Positions 43,079 to 54,861 of a stretch of 64,000 nucleotides of DNA are shown piece after piece. The notes below the pieces were generated by a model that was given only the letters and a program-made list of their open reading frames with translations, was not told the origin of the DNA and ran no database searches. Where the stretch lies: positions 1-64,000 of the forward strand of contig NZ_CANMNK010000006.1 in the NCBI RefSeq assembly GCF_947499265.1. The letters are read 5' to 3'. The position numbers and the translations under genes are program-made. This DNA comes from an uncultured Roseobacter sp. (GTDB taxonomy: Bacteria; Pseudomonadota; Alphaproteobacteria; Rhodobacterales; Rhodobacteraceae). Position 1 is the first letter of the stretch. Each line of letters opens with the position of its first letter.

Positions 43079-43570
43079 ATGACAATTCTGGACCGCTTTG
43101 CACTTTGGCTTGGCCGCATGACGGCCTGGTGTTTTGGCGCGATCATTCTGGTCATGGTCTACGAGGTGACGGCCCGATACGGGTTCAATGCGCCCACAGC
43201 CTGGGCCCATGAGACATCGGTCCTGCTGGCCTCATTCGGGTTTGTGTTCGGAGGGGCCTTCTGCATGGCGGAGGGCACCCACATGCGCATCTCGTTTCTG
43301 GTGGACAAGCGCCCTGGGCTGGCACGGTTTTCAAACGAGCTCAGCCTTGCAGCGGGCGCAATCTACCTTGCGGGCCTGTGCTATGCGTCCTGGCGGATGG
43401 CGGAAAAGGCGCTGTGGCGGTTTTCGATTTCCGGTGCGTGGGACCCTGAGCGCTCAGGCAGTACGCTTAATTCGCCCTTGCCGGGCTACCTCAAGGCGCT
43501 CCTTTTCGTGGGCTGTGCGTTGTTTCTGCTCTTGGTGCTGAACCGCATGATCCCGCGGCGGAAATTCTGA
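43079..43570 (+). CDS. dctQ: TRAP transporter small permease (DctQ)
   Basis: A 163-residue membrane protein with four helices, typical of DctQ. The family motif region EVTARYGFNAPTAWAHETS is present near residue 30. One-base overlap with the DctM start (43570). Confidence 0.88.
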   Translation: MTILDRFALWLGRMTAWCFGAIILVMVYEVTARYGFNAPTAWAHETSVLLASFGFVFGGAFCMAEGTHMRISFLVDKRPGLARFSNELSLAAGAIYLAGLCYASWRMAEKALWRFSISGAWDPERSGSTLNSPLPGYLKALLFVGCALFLLLVLNRMIPRRKF

Positions 43571-44886
43571 TGGACATCGGCACGCTCACCCTGCTGATCA
43601 TCGCGGCGATGGCGTTGATGCTGATGCTGGGTGTGCCGCTGGCCTTCGTGTCCGGCGCGATTGCGGTGGTTCTGACCGTTACGCAATTCGGTTGGAATGC
43701 GCTCTTTGTGGTGGGCAGCCGTACGGTGGAATTCCTCGACAGCTTTGCCCTGATCGCGGTGCCGATGTTCGTCATCATGGCGTCAATCATGGAGAAATCC
43801 GGCGTGGCAGGTGACCTCTACCGCGCGTTCCATGTCTGGGCAGGCGGGCTGCGCGGCGGGATCGGGGTGGTCACCACCTTTGTTGCGGTGCTGCTGGGCG
43901 CGACAACGGGGATCATCGGTGGAGAGATTGTGCTGCTGGGGCTAATTGCCCTGCCGCAGATGCTGAAACTGGGATACGATAAGAAGCTCGCCATTGGCAC
44001 GATCACGGCGGGTGGCAGTCTGGGCACCATGATCCCGCCATCGATCATCCTGATCTTCTATGGGCTCACCGCAGAGGTCAGCATCTCGCACCTGTTTCTG
44101 GCCACGCTGATGCCCGGGCTGATGCTGGCGGGCTTTTACATCACCTATATCCTGATCCGCTGCGGGCTGAATCCCGCCATGGGGCCACCGTTGAGCGCCG
44201 AGGAACGCGACATGCCATTGGGCGAGAAGCTCCGACTTTTCGGCGGAGTGCTTTTGCCGATGCTGGTGGCAGGCGGTGTGCTGGTGTCTATCTATGCCGG
44301 GTTTGCCTCGATCACGGAAAGCGCTGCACTCGGTGCCTTTGGCGCGGCGGTTGCCGCATGGGTTCGCGGACGGTTCAGCTTCGAGATGCTGCACGATGTG
44401 CTGGTGCAGGCTCTGCGCACCTGCGGCATGGTGTTCTGGCTGGTGTTCGGGACCAACGCGCTCATCGGCGTCTACAATCTCATGGGAGGCATCGACTTTG
44501 CCCGCACGACGCTGGGCGGTGTCTCGAACGAACCCGCGGTCATCCTCGCCGTGATGATCGGTGTCTTCGTTCTGCTGGGGTTCTTCATCGACTGGATCGG
44601 CATCCTGTTCCTGACGATGCCTGTGTTCCTGCCGGTGCTGACGTCGCTGGGCTATGATCCGATCTGGTTCGGCATCGTCTTCAACCTGTCCATGCAGATC
44701 GCTTATCTGACGCCGCCCTTTGGGCCCGCCTGCTTCTATCTCAAGGGGGCGGCCCCGCCGGGCGTGACCTTGCAGGACATATTTGCCGCGCAGTGGCCCT
44801 TCATCGGCATCCAGATTGTCGCCCTGATCATCGTTGTGCTCTGGCCGGGTCTGTCGCTGTGGCTGCCGCAACTGGTTTACGAGTGA
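43570..44886 (+). CDS. dctM: TRAP transporter large permease (DctM)
   Basis: A 438-residue permease of the DctM family with about 12 hydrophobic segments. Signature stretches are GATTGIIGGEIVLLGLIALP, GTMIPPSIILIFYGLTAEVS and LTPPFGPACFYLKG. It energises uptake together with DctPQ using the sodium gradient (family knowledge). Next gene begins 7 bases after its stop. Confidence 0.92.
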   Translation: MDIGTLTLLIIAAMALMLMLGVPLAFVSGAIAVVLTVTQFGWNALFVVGSRTVEFLDSFALIAVPMFVIMASIMEKSGVAGDLYRAFHVWAGGLRGGIGVVTTFVAVLLGATTGIIGGEIVLLGLIALPQMLKLGYDKKLAIGTITAGGSLGTMIPPSIILIFYGLTAEVSISHLFLATLMPGLMLAGFYITYILIRCGLNPAMGPPLSAEERDMPLGEKLRLFGGVLLPMLVAGGVLVSIYAGFASITESAALGAFGAAVAAWVRGRFSFEMLHDVLVQALRTCGMVFWLVFGTNALIGVYNLMGGIDFARTTLGGVSNEPAVILAVMIGVFVLLGFFIDWIGILFLTMPVFLPVLTSLGYDPIWFGIVFNLSMQIAYLTPPFGPACFYLKGAAPPGVTLQDIFAAQWPFIGIQIVALIIVVLWPGLSLWLPQLVYE

Positions 44887-44892
44887 TCCGAC

Positions 44893-46920
44893 ATGGCTGA
44901 TGCTTCGATCCTCGATACGCTCCCGCGTCCTCAGACAAACCGGCTGAGTGGGAAGGACCATCTGGCGCTGCTGGAACAGATGATGCGGATCAGACAGTTT
45001 GAGATACGCGCCAAGGAGTTGTTCCTGAAAGGCGTGATCAAAGGTACGGCGCATTCATCCGTGGGGCAGGAGGCGATTGCCGTCGGCGCCTGCCACGCGC
45101 TTGAACCGCGCGACTTTCTTTTGACCCACCACCGGGGGCATGGCCATACCCTCGCCAAAGGGGCGGATATCGGACGGATGTTCGCGGAGCTGATGGGCAA
45201 GGCCGAAGGCTATTGTGGCGGCATCGGTGGGTCCATGCATATCGCGGATTTCGACCTCAATATTCTTGGGGCCAATGGGATTGTCGGGGCAGGCATGGGC
45301 CTTGGCGCCGGGGCGGCACTGGCGGCCAAGCTGGGCGGCGATGGATCGGTTGGGATCGCGTTTTTTGGCGATGGCGCTTCCAACGAAGGGATATTCCACG
45401 AAGCGATGAACCTATGTGCCCTCTGGAAGCTGCCGCTGATTTTCTTTTGCGAAAACAACCAATACGGTCTGACGACGGCCACGGAAAGCGTGATTGCCGG
45501 TAAGGGCATCGCGGCCCGTGGCGACGCCTACGGCATCCCCAATACAGTTATTGATGGCAACGCGCCGGTTGCAGTTTTTGAGGCGGTGGAAAAGGCTGTG
45601 TTGCGCGCCCGGGCAGGTGACGGCCCCACGCTGATCGAGGCGATGACCTATCGCTGGGATGATCATTCGATGCGCGCCAACCTCGCAGGGTACCGGAGCG
45701 CGACCGAAGAAGCCGGCTGGCGGGATCGTGATCCAATTGCGCGCCAGCGGGCGCTTGTGCTTGAGACAGGCGAGGTCGACGCAAGTGTTTTGGAAGCGCT
45801 GCAAGAGAGCGTGGCCGCGGCGGTCGAGGAGGCGATCACCTGGGCGTCAGACCTGCCCGAACCGGAGCTTGCCAGCGCCTTGCAAATGGTAAAGGTGCCG
45901 CTCGGTAAACCCGATCTGCTGGAACCACCACCCGGCACACGGTCGCTGACCTACAAGATGGCGATCAACGAGGCCTTCCATCAGGAGATGGCACGCGATG
46001 AAACCGTGATCCTGATGGGCGAGGATGTCGGCCCTGTCGGAGGCATCTTTGGGACCACCACGGGTCTGCACGCAGCATTCGGGCTTGAACGGGTGCGCGA
46101 TGTGCCCATCGCCGAGGGCGTTCTTGCCAATTGCGGTGTCGGTGCAGCGCTGCGCGGGCTCAGGCCGATCATCGAGATTCAGCTGTTCGACTTTGTCACG
46201 CTGATGATGGATGCCATCGTCAATCAGGCCGCCAAGGCGCGTTTTATGCTGGGGGGCAAGGCGCGCGTGCCAATCGTCTTTCGCGGCCCGCAAGGGGCGG
46301 GCATCCGGCTGGCGGCGCAGCATACGCAGTCGCTGGAAATGCTCTTTGCCAACGTGCCGGGGCTGGAGGTCTATGCGCCCGCGTCCGCCTATGATGCAAA
46401 GGGGTTGATGGCCGCGGCCATAAGGTCCGACAACCCGGTTGTCTTTCTCGAACACAAACTTCTCTATCTTGGGGCAGAGACACCTGTCCCGGAGGCACCC
46501 TACGAGATCGCCCCCGGAACGGCGCGGATCGTCCGCAAGGGCCGTGATTGCACGGTCATCGCCACCTTGGCGATGGTTGAGCGTGCCCAGCAGGCCGCCG
46601 AACGGTTGGACAGGAAGGGGATCAGCGTTGAGATCATCGATCCGCGCACGATCAAGCCGCTGGATATGAAGACAATCCTGACTTCGGTGCGCAAAACCAA
46701 CCGGGCTGTCGTGGTGCATGAAGCGCCGCTCTTTGGCGGCTTTGGCGGAGAGATCGCCGCCAGCATCATGGAACAGGCCTTTGACTGGCTGGATGCACCC
46801 GTTGTCCGCGTGGGCGCACCTGAGATGCCGGTGCCCTACAACGACCGGCTTGAGCGGGACTACATGCCCGATGCCCGAGATATCGCAACCGCCATCGAAA
46901 CCGCCTGTTACAGGAGTTAA
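44893..46920 (+). CDS. Fused alpha-beta 2-oxoacid dehydrogenase E1 component
   Basis: Thiamine-diphosphate enzyme of 675 residues joining the normally separate E1 alpha and beta subunits. The alpha half (1-325) has GDGASNEGIFHEAMNL with the FFCENN TPP-binding end. The beta half (345-675) has MAINEAFHQEMARDETVILMGEDVG and QLFDFVTLMMDAIVNQAAKAR. It resembles acetoin or branched-chain dehydrogenase E1. No E2 or E3 gene follows in the operon, so it either uses partners from elsewhere or acts on a 2-oxo acid as a stand-alone decarboxylase-type enzyme. Confidence 0.88.
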   Translation: MADASILDTLPRPQTNRLSGKDHLALLEQMMRIRQFEIRAKELFLKGVIKGTAHSSVGQEAIAVGACHALEPRDFLLTHHRGHGHTLAKGADIGRMFAELMGKAEGYCGGIGGSMHIADFDLNILGANGIVGAGMGLGAGAALAAKLGGDGSVGIAFFGDGASNEGIFHEAMNLCALWKLPLIFFCENNQYGLTTATESVIAGKGIAARGDAYGIPNTVIDGNAPVAVFEAVEKAVLRARAGDGPTLIEAMTYRWDDHSMRANLAGYRSATEEAGWRDRDPIARQRALVLETGEVDASVLEALQESVAAAVEEAITWASDLPEPELASALQMVKVPLGKPDLLEPPPGTRSLTYKMAINEAFHQEMARDETVILMGEDVGPVGGIFGTTTGLHAAFGLERVRDVPIAEGVLANCGVGAALRGLRPIIEIQLFDFVTLMMDAIVNQAAKARFMLGGKARVPIVFRGPQGAGIRLAAQHTQSLEMLFANVPGLEVYAPASAYDAKGLMAAAIRSDNPVVFLEHKLLYLGAETPVPEAPYEIAPGTARIVRKGRDCTVIATLAMVERAQQAAERLDRKGISVEIIDPRTIKPLDMKTILTSVRKTNRAVVVHEAPLFGGFGGEIAASIMEQAFDWLDAPVVRVGAPEMPVPYNDRLERDYMPDARDIATAIETACYRS

Positions 46921-48282: not shown

Positions 48283-51231
48283 TCACACCGCAGTAAAATG
48301 CCCGTTTTGGAACAGCTGCCGGACGCGACGCAAAAGACCGTCGTAGCCGTTTTTTTCGCAAAGGCGGGTCAACTGTCCGACGATTGCTTCGCTGCCGGTC
48401 AATTCGCCAATCTCGTATCTGATGTCGACTTCCGCGGCCAGCAATTGCGCGTGAAAGGCTTCTGTGCCCGTCGGAATTGCAATATTGTACCCGGCCGTCA
48501 GTGCGCCGTGAGCATTTTCAATCTGGCCCAGCTTTGCATAAGCCCGTGCGCGCGGGGCTGACAAAAAGGCGGGAAGCACTTCGATGCGCGCGTGTTCGCA
48601 GATTTTCATGGCCTCGTTCAGAATATCGAGGCTTTGCGCGTGGTCTCCGCGCTGCAGATGGTAAAAGCCCAGGGAAATGCTGCCGAATGCGCGATCATAG
48701 GGCTTTGCTGATCGCCCAACCAAGGCTTTGACCTGCTCGCAAACACGGCCTGCATCTTCGAGATGGCCAGACAGGCTAAGCGAATTTGCATGGGTGCAGG
48801 TTCCCAGCACCGATAGGGTGCCAGCGGTTCTGTTGTTCAGGCGGTCATTTTCCGGCGTGAAGAGATGACCGAAGTCGGTTTCGATCTGAACGGCGGCGTC
48901 GTAGTCCGCCCTGAACCAATAGGCCTGGCTCAGCGCAAATGCAGCCGTGGCGATGAAACCCGGGGCACCCCTGTCGATGGCCCGGTCCAATGTCTGACGA
49001 CCGATCTTGATCGCCTCGCGGAGGTCCGACAGGATTGTCATCATGATGGTCCGGTCGATGCTTGCGCCAAGCGCGGATGCATCATCTCCCACCTGCTGCG
49101 AAAGGCTTTCGATCTCGGCGGCGATGGCCATGATCTGTGTGAAATCCGCCTTGGGCAGCAGAGCGACGCGCAACCCCTGACGGGCCTGAATGCCGATGGA
49201 CGCGGTTCTATGCGGATTAGCGTCGACTTTTTCGGCGCATTTGAGAGCTTCCCTGAAATGGATCACGGCATCATCAAAGGCCGCGCGCTCGATGGCCAGA
49301 TGGCCGCAGCGCACATAGGATGACGCAGCTTCGACCCAGCGCTGCGATCTCTCCGCATGAAAGGCGAGGGACGTCATGGTCGCCAGGTCGCTGCCACGGC
49401 TCATACCATCGATGATGTCCACGGACACGCCGTGCAGATGCCTTAGCCGCCGTTTCGGTAGCCCCGAGTATGTGACCTGATGGATCAGCGCGTGGCGAAA
49501 TTTTGCAACGGGTTTTTCAATGTTCTCGATGAGGTCGAGCTTGGCAAGCGAAACCAGGGATGCGTCATCTTCCAGACCTTCCCGGCGAAGCATCATCCGC
49601 AGTAAATCAACCGAGAACTCAGAGCCAATGACGGCCGCCATCTGCAATGTCTGGCGGGTCGCGGTGGGCAGCGCATCGAGGCGTTGCGCGATCAGGGGTT
49701 GAACACTGTCGGGGACCTTGAAACCACCGCCCTTGCGCCTGACTGCGGGCAATCCGGACGACTTCAGATTGCGGATGATTTCTTCGATGAAAAGCGGTGT
49801 CTGCCCGCAGATGTCATCTACGAAGTCACTCAGGTCTTCCTTGCCGTCCGAACGGGGCAGCAAGTTACTGATCAGATCGCGGCTTGAGGCATCATCGAGC
49901 GGCCCAAGCGTGATCTTGTCAATCGTTCCATCGGCATACCCGGGGACATCCGTCTCGGTGCGGGAGGTGACGATCACCAGAAGCGGGAAGGCCGGGGCAG
50001 CTGCAACCAGATGTGACACAAGCGTTTTGGTATATTGATCGGTCCAGTGTATGTCTTCAAAGACCAGAACAAGCGGCTTTTTTATCGATAACGCCTGAAA
50101 GATCGCCAGCAGCGCATCGACGATGGCCTCTTGTTGCAGCTTCGGACTTAACATCACCCAGGCCGGATCTTCGCTTTTGGAGTGCAGAACAGAGTAGAGT
50201 GCGTTTGCCCGCCGAGCGCGTTTTGCTGAATCCTGTTGCAGATACGGCATCAACTTCTGAGAGATGCGCGCAGGATCAGGGGTTTTCGGCAGGTCAAGCC
50301 AGAGGCCGAGGGTCCGGGAAATCGGCGCATAGGCCACCTGCCTGTCCAGCGCGGTGGCGCTGAATTCCAGCACCTCAGCAGCCGTATGGTCAATCTCGGC
50401 AGTAAACTCGTGAACCAGCCGCGATTTTCCGATGCCAGCCTCGCCCACAAGTGCCACGGCTGCGCCCGCGCCCGAGCGCGCCCGCGCCCAGGCCTGTTGA
50501 AGCCTGTCGAGGTCGGCTTTCCGTCCGACAAAATGCGACAGCCCGCGATCAACGCGCGTTTTCCAGCGAGAAACGGATTCGTTGCGTTTTTCGACTTCAA
50601 ACAGTCTGAGCGGCTGATCCATCCCGCGCACGAAGGTTTCGCCCAACTCTCGAACATGAAACATCTCGCCAACAGCATCGATGACGGTCGGGGACACGGT
50701 GACAGAGTTATTGGCCGCCACGGACTGGATTTTATCGGCCAGATGCACGACAGATCCGGTCAAGGTCAATTCGTCGAAACTGGTGTGGGACAGATTACCA
50801 AACAATACCGGGCCGGTGTGGATGCCCACGCGAATGTCGACGCGGTCTTCCTGCATGTCGGCAATCCGCTCGACCACGGTCAGGCCGGCTTCGACAGCGC
50901 GCAGGCAGTGACTTTCATCAGCTGCGGGAAAGCCGAAAGCGGCCATGGCACCATCCCCCACAAACCGAACGGAGGCACCAAATTCTTCGCAGGTATCCAT
51001 GATCAACTCGACCGCGGGCCCAAGCCGGTCCAAAGCCTCTTCCGGGTCGAGATCTTCGATCAGCGCTGTGGAACTGACAATATCGATGAAGACGATTGTA
51101 CATATCTTCTGCTCGCGCGCTTCGATATGCACTTTACGATTTTTTCGACCTGGTTTCTCGTGGCGATCAGGCAAAGTTTTCTCCAAACAGGGCTGCATAA
51201 ACCGCCTCGCGTGTATTATGATCTTTAACAA
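48283..51231 (-). CDS. Adenylate/guanylate cyclase-AAA ATPase fusion, TPR-like tail
   Basis: A 982-residue signalling protein. Residues 42-215 form a class III cyclase domain (CTIVFIDIVSSTALIEDLDP with Asp 50; VRFVGDGAMAAFGFPA with Asp 93), the two metal sites. The later motif normally VNxAxR reads VVHLADKIQ, replacing the catalytic Asn and Arg by His and Lys. An AAA-type ATPase follows, with Walker A GEAGIGKSR and Walker B LVLVFEDIHWTD, then a long helical TPR-like C-terminus. Start uncertain (51231 or Met 12 at 51198). It is divergent from the RiPP precursor gene by about 120 bases and is its likely regulator. Confidence 0.82.
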   Translation of the reverse strand: MLKIIIHARRFMQPCLEKTLPDRHEKPGRKNRKVHIEAREQKICTIVFIDIVSSTALIEDLDPEEALDRLGPAVELIMDTCEEFGASVRFVGDGAMAAFGFPAADESHCLRAVEAGLTVVERIADMQEDRVDIRVGIHTGPVLFGNLSHTSFDELTLTGSVVHLADKIQSVAANNSVTVSPTVIDAVGEMFHVRELGETFVRGMDQPLRLFEVEKRNESVSRWKTRVDRGLSHFVGRKADLDRLQQAWARARSGAGAAVALVGEAGIGKSRLVHEFTAEIDHTAAEVLEFSATALDRQVAYAPISRTLGLWLDLPKTPDPARISQKLMPYLQQDSAKRARRANALYSVLHSKSEDPAWVMLSPKLQQEAIVDALLAIFQALSIKKPLVLVFEDIHWTDQYTKTLVSHLVAAAPAFPLLVIVTSRTETDVPGYADGTIDKITLGPLDDASSRDLISNLLPRSDGKEDLSDFVDDICGQTPLFIEEIIRNLKSSGLPAVRRKGGGFKVPDSVQPLIAQRLDALPTATRQTLQMAAVIGSEFSVDLLRMMLRREGLEDDASLVSLAKLDLIENIEKPVAKFRHALIHQVTYSGLPKRRLRHLHGVSVDIIDGMSRGSDLATMTSLAFHAERSQRWVEAASSYVRCGHLAIERAAFDDAVIHFREALKCAEKVDANPHRTASIGIQARQGLRVALLPKADFTQIMAIAAEIESLSQQVGDDASALGASIDRTIMMTILSDLREAIKIGRQTLDRAIDRGAPGFIATAAFALSQAYWFRADYDAAVQIETDFGHLFTPENDRLNNRTAGTLSVLGTCTHANSLSLSGHLEDAGRVCEQVKALVGRSAKPYDRAFGSISLGFYHLQRGDHAQSLDILNEAMKICEHARIEVLPAFLSAPRARAYAKLGQIENAHGALTAGYNIAIPTGTEAFHAQLLAAEVDIRYEIGELTGSEAIVGQLTRLCEKNGYDGLLRRVRQLFQNGHFTAV

Positions 51232-51297
51232 CTTGCGGACACAAGAGGGACATTCAACTTACACTCTGAGGTTGTGTCTATTGACGTGGGAACAATG

Positions 51298-51316
51298 TTG
51301 CCCAATGAATTGGCAA
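51298..51316. promoter_or_regulatory. Dyad in the divergent RiPP/cyclase promoter region
   Basis: TTGCC (51298-51302) and GGCAA (51312-51316), extendable to TTGCCCAAT / ATTGGCAA with one extra base, lie upstream of the precursor gene. A possible operator. Confidence 0.35.
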
Positions 51317-51352
51317 GTTATGCAATCAGAAATTTGAAATAGGGGAAATTTC

Positions 51353-51667
51353 ATGGCAGACGGCGAACACAAACACGGCTCCAAGCATCTTTCACTCGAT
51401 GATGTGCAATCAATTATCGGTCGCGCGATTATGGACCGAGGTTTCCGTGAGGCATTCGTCAAGGACCCTGACGGCACGCTGAAAAAGATGCAGATCAGCA
51501 CGACGGTTGACGGGGTCGCCGACGAAAAGGCAATCGCGCTGATCAAGGCCATTGCAGAAGCCTTGGGGGAGGGCAATCGCGGTGTCAGCCTCGAAGAGGC
51601 GCTAGAAACCCTTCGGAAATCCTATCTGGATTCGGCGGATGGCGTTATTCGTCCGAGGTGCGGCTAG
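51353..51667 (+). CDS. Candidate RiPP precursor with NHLP/Os1348-like leader
   Basis: A 104-residue protein. Residues 15-40 (LDDVQSIIGRAIMDRGFREA, then FVKDPDG) match the leader pattern of the Franean1_4349/Os1348 NHLP-type precursors (xxVIGRxxxDxxFRxxFxxDPxxxL). The C-terminal tail after about residue 88 (RKSYLDSADGVIRPRCG) contains the only Cys and is the probable core, rich in residues that radical SAM enzymes modify. AGGGGAAA sits before the ATG. The radical SAM maturase starts 26 bases after its stop. Core length and cleavage site are inferred. Confidence 0.72.
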   Translation: MADGEHKHGSKHLSLDDVQSIIGRAIMDRGFREAFVKDPDGTLKKMQISTTVDGVADEKAIALIKAIAEALGEGNRGVSLEEALETLRKSYLDSADGVIRPRCG

Positions 51668-51692
51668 GGCACCCCGCTCTTAGCGCTGGGAA

Positions 51693-53597
51693 ATGACGCC
51701 GCATGAAAAGAGGCGAGGTGTTCATATTGTCTCCTTGCCCTTCACCTCGTTGCAATACCCGAACCTGGGTGCCAGCCTGCTGACGACGGCGCTGCGGGGT
51801 CGCGGCATAAAATGCGCGCTCGATTACTTCGCATTCGACTTCGCGACGAGGATCGGCGTTGAATCCTATCTCATGCTCTCCCATGAGAATTTTTATCAGG
51901 CATTTTTAGGAGAATGGATATTCTCCGATCTGGTTTTCGAGCGACCCGAAGATCTGGATATGGAATACCTCGCGACCGTCCTGCCAGACTTTGCGGAACC
52001 ACTGGAGGTGCTCCAGCTCATGAGCCTCGCGCTGTCCGCACGCAGCAAAACCCGGGATTTCATCGACAGCTGTGCGGCATCGGTGGCCGCGCAAGAGCCT
52101 GCCTTGGTTGGCGTCACGACCTCGTTTCAGCAAAATCTGGCGTCGGTTGCCTTTGCTAAGGCTCTCAAATTGCGGGCCCCTCACATTCCGATCATCTTCG
52201 GTGGTGCGAATTGCGAGGCGGAGCTGGGCCAGAACCTGTTGAAACAGTTTGATGCAATCGATGCGGTCTGCAGCGGCGAAGGGGACATGTCCTTTCCCAC
52301 CTTTGTTGAGATGTATCTGCAGACGGGCGTGCTCCCGAACGTGGCCGGTATCCTGACCAGAGAGGCCGGCGCGACCGATAGCCAGACAACGCCCGGTGTC
52401 CTCGACCTGGACGCTTTGCCGATCCCCGATTTCTCAGACTTTTACGCCAGCTTTGATGGCACACCCGGTTTGAGCGACCTGTTGCAGCCCGCGCCCACCA
52501 TCGAAACCTCGCGCGGCTGTTGGTGGGGGGCCAAGCACCATTGCACGTTCTGCGGATTGAACGGAAATTCGATGGCTTACCGCAGCAAGTCGCCTGAGCG
52601 TGCCCTTACCGAATTCCGCCATCAAGCGGATCAGTATGGTGCCGATTTCGTGGTGGTCGACAACATCCTGGACTACGCCTATTTTGACAGCCTGTTGCCG
52701 ATGCTGCGCGATGACCCGCACCCCTACCTGATGCACTACGAGGTCAAATCCAACCTGTTTCCCAAACATATCGACGCAATGGCCAAAGCCGGTATTCGCA
52801 AGATCCAGCCCGGCATTGAAACGCTCGATACCGGTATTCTGAAGCTGATGAAAAAGGGCGTTACGGCGCTGCAGAACATTCAGACCCTTAAGCTTTGTGC
52901 GCAGGCGGGTATTTTTGTCGATTGGGGTTTCATCTTCGGATTTCCCGATGAAGACCCGCAAAGCTATCAGCGGATGGCGGATCTGATCCCCCATCTGCAC
53001 CATCTACAACCGCCCGCCGCGTTTGCGCCGGTGCGTGCTGATCGGTTCAGCCCATATTTTTCAAGACCGGCGGATTACAATGTCGATCTCTCTCCGGCCG
53101 CACCTTATCGCTATATTTACGCAGGCGTCGGCGAGGATCTCGGGCAATTCAGCTATCATCATCAGATGTCGGGCGCGGGCATTGATGCGGCGCATGAATA
53201 CTCGCGTTGTACCCGGACCGCTGTCACCAACTGGATCGAATGCCACGGGCAGGCGCTCTACTATATCGAGGATCAAACGGCACAGGATTTTACGCTGATC
53301 GACCATCGGGGCCCGTCAAAGCGTAGATCGCACCTGAGCAGACTTGAATCGGATATCATCCGCCAGTGTAGCTGCATCAATTCATATCATCGCGTGGTCG
53401 AGCAACTGGCGCCCGATTACGAAACGAAAGAGATCGAGGCGGCAATTGACGGGCTGCTGGAGATCAGCGCCCTCGTGTCGGAACGTCGCACATTGCTTGC
53501 TCTCCCCCTTGCTGGTGGGGGCTATAAGTGTGCGCCCAACTGGTCGGAAATCCGCGCTCGAAATCTTCAGGAGGCCGGGCAAAGCGTCGAAGCGTGA
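51693..53597 (+). CDS. RiPP maturation radical SAM protein (rSAM_ocin_1 type)
   Basis: A 634-residue enzyme. The N-terminal part (1-200) resembles a cobalamin-binding fold (PNLGASLLTTALRGRGI, then IPIIFGGANCEAELG). The radical SAM core has ETSRGCWWGAKHHCTFCGLN: the cluster Cys 276, 284 and 287 are spaced Cx7CxxC, the pattern of this RiPP family. RSKSPERALTEF, VVDNILDYAYF, KIQPGIETLDTGILKLMKKG and FIFGFPDEDP are further family blocks. It likely modifies the 104-residue precursor, perhaps by C-methylation, epimerisation or a cross-link; the chemistry cannot be told from sequence alone. Confidence 0.88.
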   Translation: MTPHEKRRGVHIVSLPFTSLQYPNLGASLLTTALRGRGIKCALDYFAFDFATRIGVESYLMLSHENFYQAFLGEWIFSDLVFERPEDLDMEYLATVLPDFAEPLEVLQLMSLALSARSKTRDFIDSCAASVAAQEPALVGVTTSFQQNLASVAFAKALKLRAPHIPIIFGGANCEAELGQNLLKQFDAIDAVCSGEGDMSFPTFVEMYLQTGVLPNVAGILTREAGATDSQTTPGVLDLDALPIPDFSDFYASFDGTPGLSDLLQPAPTIETSRGCWWGAKHHCTFCGLNGNSMAYRSKSPERALTEFRHQADQYGADFVVVDNILDYAYFDSLLPMLRDDPHPYLMHYEVKSNLFPKHIDAMAKAGIRKIQPGIETLDTGILKLMKKGVTALQNIQTLKLCAQAGIFVDWGFIFGFPDEDPQSYQRMADLIPHLHHLQPPAAFAPVRADRFSPYFSRPADYNVDLSPAAPYRYIYAGVGEDLGQFSYHHQMSGAGIDAAHEYSRCTRTAVTNWIECHGQALYYIEDQTAQDFTLIDHRGPSKRRSHLSRLESDIIRQCSCINSYHRVVEQLAPDYETKEIEAAIDGLLEISALVSERRTLLALPLAGGGYKCAPNWSEIRARNLQEAGQSVEA

Positions 53598-53715
53598 GGG
53601 GCCAGGGTGATTTTTTCACAGGTGAATGAGTATATCCGTCTCATCTCCGCTTGCCGTGGCGTGGGAAGAGCCGGAACTGTCTCATTGGTACCGGGGCGCG
53701 AAGATTTGATCTACT

Positions 53716-54861
53716 TCAGTCGTCCAATGCCGATAACAGGAGATTGGCCGCAGCCTCTGCTGATCCGTCACCAGCCAGTGCCAAGGTGACAATGGCGCGC
53801 CGTGACGGTACATAAGCAGCAACGGCTTTCGCACCCTCAACGCCACCGGAGTGCCCAAGCCAGAGCGTCGGGCCTTCGGCAGTGGGCACGTCGTAGGCCA
53901 TCACGCCCAGCCCGTACCAAAGACCGGGATCCGCCATCGGATAGAGGTCATGAAACATCTCTTCGACCTGTGCAGTGGGCAGAATATCTCCTGCAAAAAG
54001 GTCCTGCAGGAAAATCGCCATGCTGCCTGCATCGGCAACGACACCTCCGGCAGCCTGTGCGTGCGCCGGGTTAAATTGATCGGTTGCAAGTGGGGCCAAG
54101 TCAGTGAGGGGATCGTCCGGCGCCAGCACGCGTATGCGCGGTGCCCGGCTGCGCGACAGCACCAGGTCCGTTGCCGCCTGATGATAGGGTTTACCGGTTA
54201 CCTCTTCGAGGACCACGCCGAGCAGGGTGTAGCCCGAGTTGGAATAGCGCCAATATGTGCCGGGGCAGGCGTAGGAGCCGCGCCGGTTCAGGACGTCAAT
54301 AAGGTCGGGTAAATCCAGCACGGCACTGTTTTTGCGCACCTGCGCATCTTCATTCGCGCTGAACAAGCCGGAAGTGTGGTTCAGCAGCATTTGCAACGTG
54401 ATCAGATCTCCGTTCGGCACACCGGACACATAATCGGAGATCGGGGTGTCGAGAGAGAGGCGATCATCGGCCTGCAGCCGAAGAATGGCCGCAGCGGTGG
54501 CGATTTTCCCAACGCTTGCCCAATAGTGCAATTGCTCTGCGCCGGAGCCCTCCTGATGCGCCCAGGGCGATCCACCCTCTTGCCAAACGGCGGCAGTCAT
54601 TGAGCGGGCTTTGGTTGCCCGGAAGGCGGTGTCAAAATTTGCGGCGAGACGGGTTATTTCAGTTTCCGACAGACCGGATTGTGCTGCTGGGTTGAGGGTC
54701 ACGCTCGACTTTGGAAGCGGGTCCCGCAGCGATGGTCCGGCATAGGTCGCAGGGGCGGAGCATGTAGCGGGCACAATGGGAGTTTGTGACGTGCAGGCGA
54801 CGGCAACCGCAATGCCTGCAACTCCGACCGCGAGCATGACTTTCGCCAAATGTCCGTGCAT
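53716..54861 (-). CDS. Beta-lactamase-fold serine hydrolase lipoprotein
   Basis: A 381-residue class C beta-lactamase/esterase-family protein. Motifs: SVGK (SxxK, near residue 117), YSN (YxN, near 208) and HSGG (HxG, near 338), giving a complete active site. The N-terminus is a lipoprotein signal ending in VAVAC, so it is anchored in a membrane facing the periplasm. It runs tail to tail with the radical SAM gene. It may be an ordinary peptidase/esterase or take part in processing of the RiPP. Confidence 0.85.
   Translation of the reverse strand: MHGHLAKVMLAVGVAGIAVAVACTSQTPIVPATCSAPATYAGPSLRDPLPKSSVTLNPAAQSGLSETEITRLAANFDTAFRATKARSMTAAVWQEGGSPWAHQEGSGAEQLHYWASVGKIATAAAILRLQADDRLSLDTPISDYVSGVPNGDLITLQMLLNHTSGLFSANEDAQVRKNSAVLDLPDLIDVLNRRGSYACPGTYWRYSNSGYTLLGVVLEEVTGKPYHQAATDLVLSRSRAPRIRVLAPDDPLTDLAPLATDQFNPAHAQAAGGVVADAGSMAIFLQDLFAGDILPTAQVEEMFHDLYPMADPGLWYGLGVMAYDVPTAEGPTLWLGHSGGVEGAKAVAAYVPSRRAIVTLALAGDGSAEAAANLLLSALDD

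What the first reader, a model, noticed from the sequence alone, without database searches (positions are those of the whole stretch)
48283..54861. Undescribed RiPP locus: radical SAM maturase, NHLP-leader precursor and cyclase-ATPase regulator
The 104-residue precursor and the radical SAM protein (Cx7CxxC, rSAM_ocin_1 pattern) are 26 bases apart, and a 982-residue cyclase-AAA protein is divergent from them. No exporter or classical leader protease is adjacent, so export and processing may use unlinked genes or the adjacent serine hydrolase.
Basis: partly seen in the sequence, partly recalled or inferred. Interest (0 to 1): 0.85.

Follow-up and report, generated by a model that had tools for sequence, protein, structure and literature searches.

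The report
Conserved methylated-peptide cassette with cyclase sensor
A marine bacterium carries a compact three-gene set coding for a small peptide with an almost unchanging tail, an enzyme likely to add methyl groups to it, and a large sensor protein likely to make a second messenger, which hints at a signalling peptide rather than an ordinary toxin.

Summary
In detail: a 104-aa Os1348-family precursor (51353-51667), a Cx7CxxC radical SAM enzyme (51693-53597; TIGR03975, 575 bits, cut-off 282) and a divergent class III cyclase-ATPase-TPR protein (48283-51231). The enzyme's closest clade (type A: 10 loci from Roseobacter, Ruegeria, Rhizobiaceae and a Ruegeria plasmid) has all three genes in 10 of 10; the adjacent serine hydrolase is not shared. 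The precursor tail DGV[IL]RPRC[AGM] is kept in 10 of 10 while codons vary and the rest averages 48% identity: purifying selection on a short core. The enzyme folds like cobalamin-dependent radical SAM methylases; Val98 and/or Ile99 is the likeliest methyl site (inferred from PoyC). The third protein looks like a STAND ATPase with TPR sensor and cyclase output. Sister operons in Acetobacteraceae-like genomes show the same trio in 8 of 11, and in one subclade a Crp/Fnr gene follows the enzyme (4 of 5). Best reading: a C-methylated peptide under, and perhaps sensed by, a dedicated STAND-cyclase. Not shown: methylation, cleavage, export, cyclase activity, peptide-TPR binding. Against exclusivity: such cyclases are common without the cassette. 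New variant of a known kind.

The parts
48283..51231 (-). Class III nucleotide cyclase - STAND-like ATPase (AAA_16) - TPR protein, up to 982 aa; true start probably downstream of the TTG
   Evidence: PF00211 78.9 bits, PF13191 73.1, TPR_12 32.4; AlphaFold2 model pLDDT 80.8, pTM 0.61; top Foldseek hit 6mfv, a STAND protein with TPR repeats, then class III cyclases; divergent neighbour in 10 of 10 type A loci
51232..51352 (.). Divergent intergenic region (promoters presumed); no palindrome common to the 10 type A loci was seen
51353..51667 (+). RiPP precursor, 104 aa, Os1348 family NHLP clan
   Evidence: NF038399 41.1 bits vs cut-off 40; AGGGG upstream of the ATG
51389..51424 (+). Conserved leader stretch L13-R24 (LSLDDVQSIIGR), likely recognition element
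   Evidence: 8 of the 23 invariant columns of A1 fall here
51638..51664 (+). Core tail D96-G104: DGVIRPRCG
   Evidence: DGV[IL]RPRC[AGM] in 10 of 10 type A precursors, with synonymous codon changes
51693..53597 (+). Radical SAM peptide C-methyltransferase of the cobalamin-dependent kind (TIGR03975)
   Evidence: 575.2 bits vs cut-off 281.85; AlphaFold2 model pLDDT 85.0, pTM 0.85; fold hits OxsB, TokK, TsrM, CysS, MgmA
52518..52553 (+). Cx7CxxC [4Fe-4S]-binding motif (C276, C284, C287)
   Evidence: sequence; invariant in 12 of 12 rows of A2

Best explanation
A self-contained RiPP cassette. The radical SAM enzyme binds the Os1348-type leader of the 104-aa precursor and adds methyl groups to unactivated carbons in its conserved tail DGVIRPRC, most likely C-beta of Val98 and/or Ile99. 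The divergent 982-aa protein is a STAND switch: an inducer bound by its C-terminal TPR sensor would open the ATPase core, bring the N-terminal class III cyclase domains together and make cAMP (or cGMP). It is the dedicated regulator of the peptide and plausibly its intracellular receptor. Shown by computation: gene content, conservation, domain and fold assignments. Inferred: methylation and its site, cyclase activity, regulation. Speculative: peptide binding by the TPR arm.
For: Trio in 10 of 10 type A loci while flanks differ. Tail kept while codons vary. rSAM family 575 bits and cobalamin-type radical SAM fold. PoyC, a Cx7Cx2C B12 enzyme, methylates C-beta of Val/Ile (passages of PMC11285071, PMC5682303). 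Cyclase protein matches a STAND protein with TPR repeats; metal-binding D50 and D93 invariant in 19 of 19. Type B sister operons: all three genes seen in 8 of 11; in one 5-member subclade a Crp/Fnr gene follows the rSAM in 4, and the fifth contig ends inside the rSAM. Outside types A and B, of 46 large genes within 1 kb of the rSAM, TPR_12 is in 17, BTAD in 16, NB-ARC in 14, Pkinase in 2; of 46 large genes over 3 kb away, BTAD is in 3 and TPR and NB-ARC families in at most 1 each.
Against: Cyclases of this family also occur without the cassette: 72 of 394 family genomes match at E<=1e-60 although only the window genome of the same sample size has the precursor, and 4 of 4 neighbourhoods checked lack rSAM and precursor. 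Of 11 further rSAM loci from order and class searches, 1 has a cyclase within 3 kb and none a precursor of this profile. Two transition-state positions are non-canonical in the window (H163, K167), and Arg is Thr in L002-L004. Type B tails lack Val (one has Ile), so the methyl site does not generalise. A charge test of TPR arms was inconclusive. No protease is linked, so a free peptide is not assured. The near genes include closely related actinobacteria, and a Crp/Fnr gene was not found after the enzyme in 5 type B loci.
Confidence: 0.55

Rival explanations
1. A bacteriocin-like RiPP: the methylated peptide is cleaved and exported by unlinked genes and inhibits neighbours; the STAND-cyclase only switches on production.
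For: TIGR03975 is named for RiPP maturation; SARP activators hold the neighbouring place in six actinobacterial loci scanned by name; distribution is patchy, 1 of 394 family genomes (the window's own) and 5 of 54 genomes of the Ruegeria genus, and one copy is on a plasmid.
Against: The core is nearly invariant across genera; beyond the trio only generic transporter families matched between the 9 loci compared.
Confidence: 0.2
2. The modified precursor is never cleaved: it works as a small modified protein, for instance a regulatory partner of the cyclase.
For: No protease or peptide exporter shared among the 9 loci compared; small proteins of L008 and L010 have no clear separate core.
Against: A sharply conserved short tail after a variable stretch looks like leader plus core.
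Confidence: 0.2
3. The tail becomes a cofactor-like or metal-binding small molecule (as PQQ or mycofactocin, recalled) with a fixed structure, using the conserved Cys103 and arginines.
For: Core kept in different genera; invariant Cys103.
Against: No client enzyme or further tailoring gene is shared nearby.
Confidence: 0.1
4. A phage-defence system of Pycsar type built on the cyclase.
For: PADLOC PycC models match the cyclase domain at up to 39.4 bits.
Against: Matches cover only the cyclase domain; precursor, enzyme and serine hydrolase have no PADLOC match.
Confidence: 0.03

Closest known systems
TIGR03975 / PoyC-type cobalamin-dependent radical SAM C-methyltransferases (polytheonamide pathway)
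   Same: Cx7CxxC motif, cobalamin-type radical SAM fold, RiPP precursor next to the enzyme
   Different: Precursor is of the Os1348 type with a short conserved tail, not a long proteusin core; no epimerase, dehydratase, exporter or protease among the scanned neighbours. PoyC itself was not compared, its sequence not being at hand; that it belongs to TIGR03975 is inferred from the motif
TOMM system kinase/cyclase (TIGR03903) and NHLP-Burk precursor clusters
   Same: NHLP-clan precursor; NHLP-Burk clusters have a large Ser/Thr kinase and no close homologue of the NHLP exporters (passages of PMC2887384); the 982-aa protein aligns to TIGR03903 over 62-782. That TIGR03903 models that kinase is inferred from its name
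   Different: No kinase domain (226.2 bits vs cut-off 705.75) and a radical SAM enzyme in place of TOMM enzymes
STAND ATPases with TPR sensor (PH0952, MalT; AfsR/SARP)
   Same: ATPase core plus TPR sensor, effector at the N-terminus (passages of PMC6468293, abstract of PMC10936776)
   Different: Effector is a class III cyclase and the inducer is unknown
Rgg/SHP and RaS-RiPP systems of streptococci
   Same: Radical SAM RiPPs tied to peptide-controlled regulators (search listing of PMC13361665 only; peptide binding through TPR-like domains is recalled)
   Different: There the regulating peptide is a separate pheromone and no cyclase is involved (recalled)

Membership tests
TIGR03975 RiPP maturation radical SAM C-methyltransferase | Score over curated cut-off | tested here: met
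   575.2 vs 281.85 bits, profile 1-606 of 606
TIGR03975 RiPP maturation radical SAM C-methyltransferase | Cx7CxxC motif | tested here: met
   C276, C284, C287 invariant in 12 of 12
TIGR03975 RiPP maturation radical SAM C-methyltransferase | Cobalamin-binding domain | tested here: inconclusive
   PF02310 23.8 bits, below 32.1; the best 15 fold hits are OxsB, TokK, TsrM, CysS and MgmA chains, all cobalamin-dependent (for CysS and MgmA recalled)
TIGR03975 RiPP maturation radical SAM C-methyltransferase | C-methylation of the precursor | not testable with these tools
   needs mass spectrometry
Os1348 family NHLP clan precursors (NF038399) | Score over curated cut-off | tested here: met
   41.1 vs 40 bits, marginal; L001 relative 32.5
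Proteusin / NHLP precursors (TIGR03793) | Score over curated cut-off | tested here: not met
   16.6 vs 50.9 bits
Proteusin / NHLP precursors (TIGR03793) | Gly-Gly type cleavage site and linked peptidase-exporter | tested here: not met
   no GG in the 104 aa; no peptidase-exporter among scanned neighbours or shared between 9 loci
TOMM system kinase/cyclase (TIGR03903) | Kinase-cyclase fusion over cut-off | tested here: not met
   226.2 vs 705.75 bits, no kinase domain
STAND ATPase with TPR sensor | ATPase core with Walker A/B followed by TPR arm | tested here: met
   GEAGIGKS and FEDIHW motifs; helices 632-976; top fold hit 6mfv; pTM 0.61, so domain packing is unsure
STAND ATPase with TPR sensor | Inducer-driven ADP/ATP switch and multimer | not testable with these tools
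   biochemistry needed
Class III nucleotide cyclase | Fold and two metal-binding Asp | tested here: met
   PF00211 78.9 bits; D50 and D93 invariant in 19 of 19; role of the residues recalled
Class III nucleotide cyclase | Canonical transition-state Asn and Arg (recalled) | tested here: not met
   His163 and Lys167 in the window, variable in relatives; Rv1900c (1ybt), a solved adenylyl cyclase, also has His at the first place but keeps Arg
Pycsar defence | PycC cyclase with effector neighbour | tested here: not met
   weak cyclase-domain hits only; three neighbours have no PADLOC match

The most novel reading that the evidence does not exclude
The C-methylated tail peptide is an intracellular ligand for the TPR sensor of its own STAND-cyclase, so that a RiPP is converted directly into a cyclic-nucleotide signal (in a type B subclade read by a Crp/Fnr protein of the same operon); the same logic with other outputs (SARP transcription factor, protein kinase) accompanies TIGR03975 enzymes in other phyla.
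Probability: 0.25. Interest if true: 0.85.

Novelty: new variant of a known kind. Interest (0 to 1): 0.6.

Why it matters
TIGR03975 enzymes occur in many phyla, yet the open-access library holds two papers that name the model, and I saw nothing on what products of this kind do. A three-gene set with a short, nearly fixed core is small enough to rebuild completely and gives a definite site prediction. If the STAND-cyclase senses the peptide, it would be a RiPP-to-cyclic-nucleotide module and would give a ligand to a STAND-TPR protein, whose inducers are mostly unknown (recalled).

Tried and rejected
Serine hydrolase 53716-54861 as leader protease: rejected, no relative in the other 8 neighbourhoods; it is a PF00144 protein with a lipobox-like N-terminus seen by eye. 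Shared operator in the divergent promoter of type A: none seen. Viral carriage: 57 pattern hits, none a relative. Defence system: only weak PycC domain hits. Charge complementarity between tails and TPR arms: arms of A are more acidic than of B (-2.8 vs -1.1 net charge per 100 residues), but so is the cyclase domain (-6.9 vs -4.1), so inconclusive. A hydrophobic-Arg motif seen by eye in several TIGR03975 precursors (IRPR, TIRAC, IIRQP, LRPQ) was not tested against chance and is lacking in type B tails, so it is not used. Recognition domain at the rSAM C-terminus: no PDB sequence match. Reading the cyclase family as exclusive to the cassette: rejected.
Full report
What is there. The window holds three adjacent genes: a 982-aa frame on the minus strand (48283-51231), a 104-aa frame (51353-51667) and a 634-aa frame (51693-53597) on the plus strand. 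The 634-aa protein scores 575.2 bits on TIGR03975, titled 'RiPP maturation radical SAM C-methyltransferase' (cut-off 281.85), and carries C276-x7-C284-xx-C287. The 104-aa protein reaches the Os1348-family model NF038399 narrowly (41.1 vs 40) but not the NHLP model TIGR03793 nor Frankia_peptide. The 982-aa protein has a class III cyclase domain, an AAA_16 ATPase and TPRs.

Conservation of the cassette. A genome scan confirmed 129 relatives of the enzyme, of which the best 80 were kept. Eight of these 80 (L001-L007, L016), a Ruegeria plasmid (L085) and the window form one clade of the enzyme tree (10 rows, SH-aLRT 100), here called type A. All 10 have the divergent cyclase, a precursor and the enzyme. 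In the nine loci compared gene by gene (L085 not included), the only other matches are between generic families: the window's frame 43570-44886 with frames of L007 and L002, and its sugar-type ABC ATPase with frames of L001, L005 and L006, plus synteny inside the close pairs L003/L004 and L005/L006. Distribution is sparse: 1 of 394 genomes of the family, the window's own, and 5 of 54 genomes of the Ruegeria genus have the precursor; in 8 of 8 relatives searched whole it occurs once. Together with the plasmid copy this suggests horizontal movement (inference).

The tail. In the nine precursors of A1 (36 pairs), residues before the last eleven average 48% identity, the last eleven 85%. DGV[IL]RPRC[AGM] is present in 10 of 10, I in nine and L in one, while the codons differ synonymously (for example CGT, CGC and CGG for the first Arg), so selection acts on the peptide. 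Caveats: L007 and L085 have the same precursor tail and near-identical loci, L005 and L006 are 98% identical, so there are fewer independent lineages than ten; and an equally dense invariant stretch lies in the leader (7 of 11 columns, same call), as expected for enzyme recognition.

The enzyme. An AlphaFold2 model (mean pLDDT 85.0, pTM 0.85; the motif loop 278-295 is below 50) matches OxsB, TokK, TsrM, CysS and MgmA best. The Pfam B12-binding match is below its cut-off. Reviews state that PoyC carries Cx7Cx2C and methylates C-beta of valine and isoleucine (passages read in PMC11285071 and PMC5682303). Val98, kept in all ten, is therefore the best candidate and Ile99 the second. This is inference; PoyC itself was not aligned here.

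The cyclase protein. A model (pLDDT 80.8, pTM 0.61) matches best 6mfv, a STAND protein with TPR repeats, then class III cyclases; a chain of 8bob, an entry on the maltose system, is 49th. D50, D93 and the P-loop residues are invariant in 19 of 19. At the places of the transition-state Asn and Arg (recalled) the window has His163 and Lys167, and Thr replaces Arg in L002-L004; Rv1900c, a solved adenylyl cyclase, has His at the first place and keeps Arg. Activity is thus plausible, not shown. The window's genome has two further matches, both to the cyclase domain only (43 and 21 bits). The family at large is common: 72 of 394 genomes match at E<=1e-60, the best after the window (1389 bits) at 706 bits, and 4 of 4 neighbourhoods checked lack rSAM and precursor. 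By the STAND literature an inducer, often bound by the sensor, opens the ATPase core and triggers multimerisation (passages of PMC6468293); class III cyclases need dimers (recalled), so the coupling is natural.

Sister systems. In a sample of 299 genomes of the family of Neoroseomonas (L010), 13 matched the enzyme profile at E<=1e-100. Two of the 13 (L111, L112) lie outside the clade and have no cyclase hit. The other eleven (L008, L010, L011, L097, L104-L110) are called type B: 10 of 11 have the cyclase, here upstream on the same strand; the contig of the eleventh (L097) is 3577 bases. A small Os1348-like frame was seen in 9 of 11, not in L106 or L108; all three genes in 8 of 11. Tails differ: DPALGMAE[CM], DPSLGMAEC, DPAFNMAEC, DPIKLAGDM, DPLKGGAGEM, or nothing distinct (L008, L010). 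In the five-member MAE-tail subclade a protein with cNMP_binding and HTH_Crp_2 domains begins two bases after the enzyme's stop (L104, L105) or in a frame that overlaps it (L011, L097); in L109 the contig ends inside the enzyme. No such gene was found after the enzyme in L008, L010, L106, L107 or L108. L009, in the same larger clade, has no cyclase. Of 11 more distant loci from order and class searches (6 of 397 and 7 of 385 genomes matched, two of these being known loci), L134 has a cyclase within 3 kb and none has a precursor of this profile.

Wider pattern with a control. For enzymes outside types A and B (69 of the 80 loci) I compared 46 large genes (>=600 aa) within 1 kb with 46 large genes over 3 kb away. 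Near: TPR_12 17, BTAD 16, NB-ARC 14, AAA_16 6, Pkinase 2. Far: BTAD 3, AAA_16 2, TPR and NB-ARC families at most 1 each, being absent from the 25 families listed, whose last entries have one member. Six actinobacterial neighbours scanned by name all have BTAD, TPR and NB-ARC domains, two of them matching AfsR below its cut-off; one acidobacterial neighbour is a kinase-TPR protein. AfsR's nucleotide-binding and TPR domains inhibit its activator domain until ATP binds (abstract of PMC10936776). The set is not phylogenetically independent, and rows were partly chosen by hand.

Mechanism and verdict. Best supported: the enzyme C-methylates the conserved tail; the STAND-cyclase is the cassette's regulator. 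The conserved core, the lack of shared exporter, protease and immunity genes, and the Crp/Fnr partner in a type B subclade favour a signalling role over a bacteriocin. That the peptide itself is the STAND inducer is the boldest reading not excluded; I give it 0.25. NHLP-Burk TOMM clusters, with a large Ser/Thr kinase and no close homologue of the NHLP exporters (passages of PMC2887384), and TIGR03903 are the nearest precedent. In the open-access library I found no description of this set; NCBI annotation names the enzyme and precursor families.

Noticed in passing
L104:8406-9125, L105:7196-7918, L011:9863-10675, L097:106-1125: Crp/Fnr-type regulator (cNMP_binding + HTH_Crp_2) directly after or overlapping the radical SAM gene in the MAE-tail subclade, closing a possible cyclic-nucleotide circuit.
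   Followed up: yes
L009:6691-11320: Thiobacillus sister locus without cyclase: Os1348-like leader, a frame with a CxxxCxxC motif (by eye, a possible second radical SAM protein), the TIGR03975 enzyme, then a protein whose start resembles clostripain-like peptidases (by eye, recalled motif).
   Followed up: partly
L017, L018, L022, L025, L030-L033 upstream of the rSAM: A different precursor family with Gly-rich ends, several with repeats such as CTIRACTIRAC or IIRQPIIRQ, in Acidobacteria, Paracoccaceae and Solirubrobacter.
   Followed up: no
L037, L054, L059, L078 and others (cluster 1): Another small-protein family next to the enzyme, mainly in actinobacterial loci; in L037, L043, L054, L059 and L078 a BTAD-NB-ARC-TPR regulator lies upstream.
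   Followed up: partly
L134:9734-13129: SAM-domain class III cyclase-AAA-TPR protein downstream of a TIGR03975-type enzyme outside the type A/B clade.
   Followed up: partly
L150:10369-11067: A cyclase-STAND-TPR protein outside the cassette also has a Crp/Fnr-like gene nearby (by eye).
   Followed up: no
window 53716-54861: PF00144 serine hydrolase with a lipobox-like N-terminus (by eye); not shared with the cassette's relatives.
   Followed up: yes
window 44893-46920: Single-chain protein with dehydrogenase E1 (PF00676) and transketolase-type domains, like fused E1 alpha and beta subunits.
   Followed up: no
[quoted passage not shown] possibly type B, not checked.
   Followed up: no
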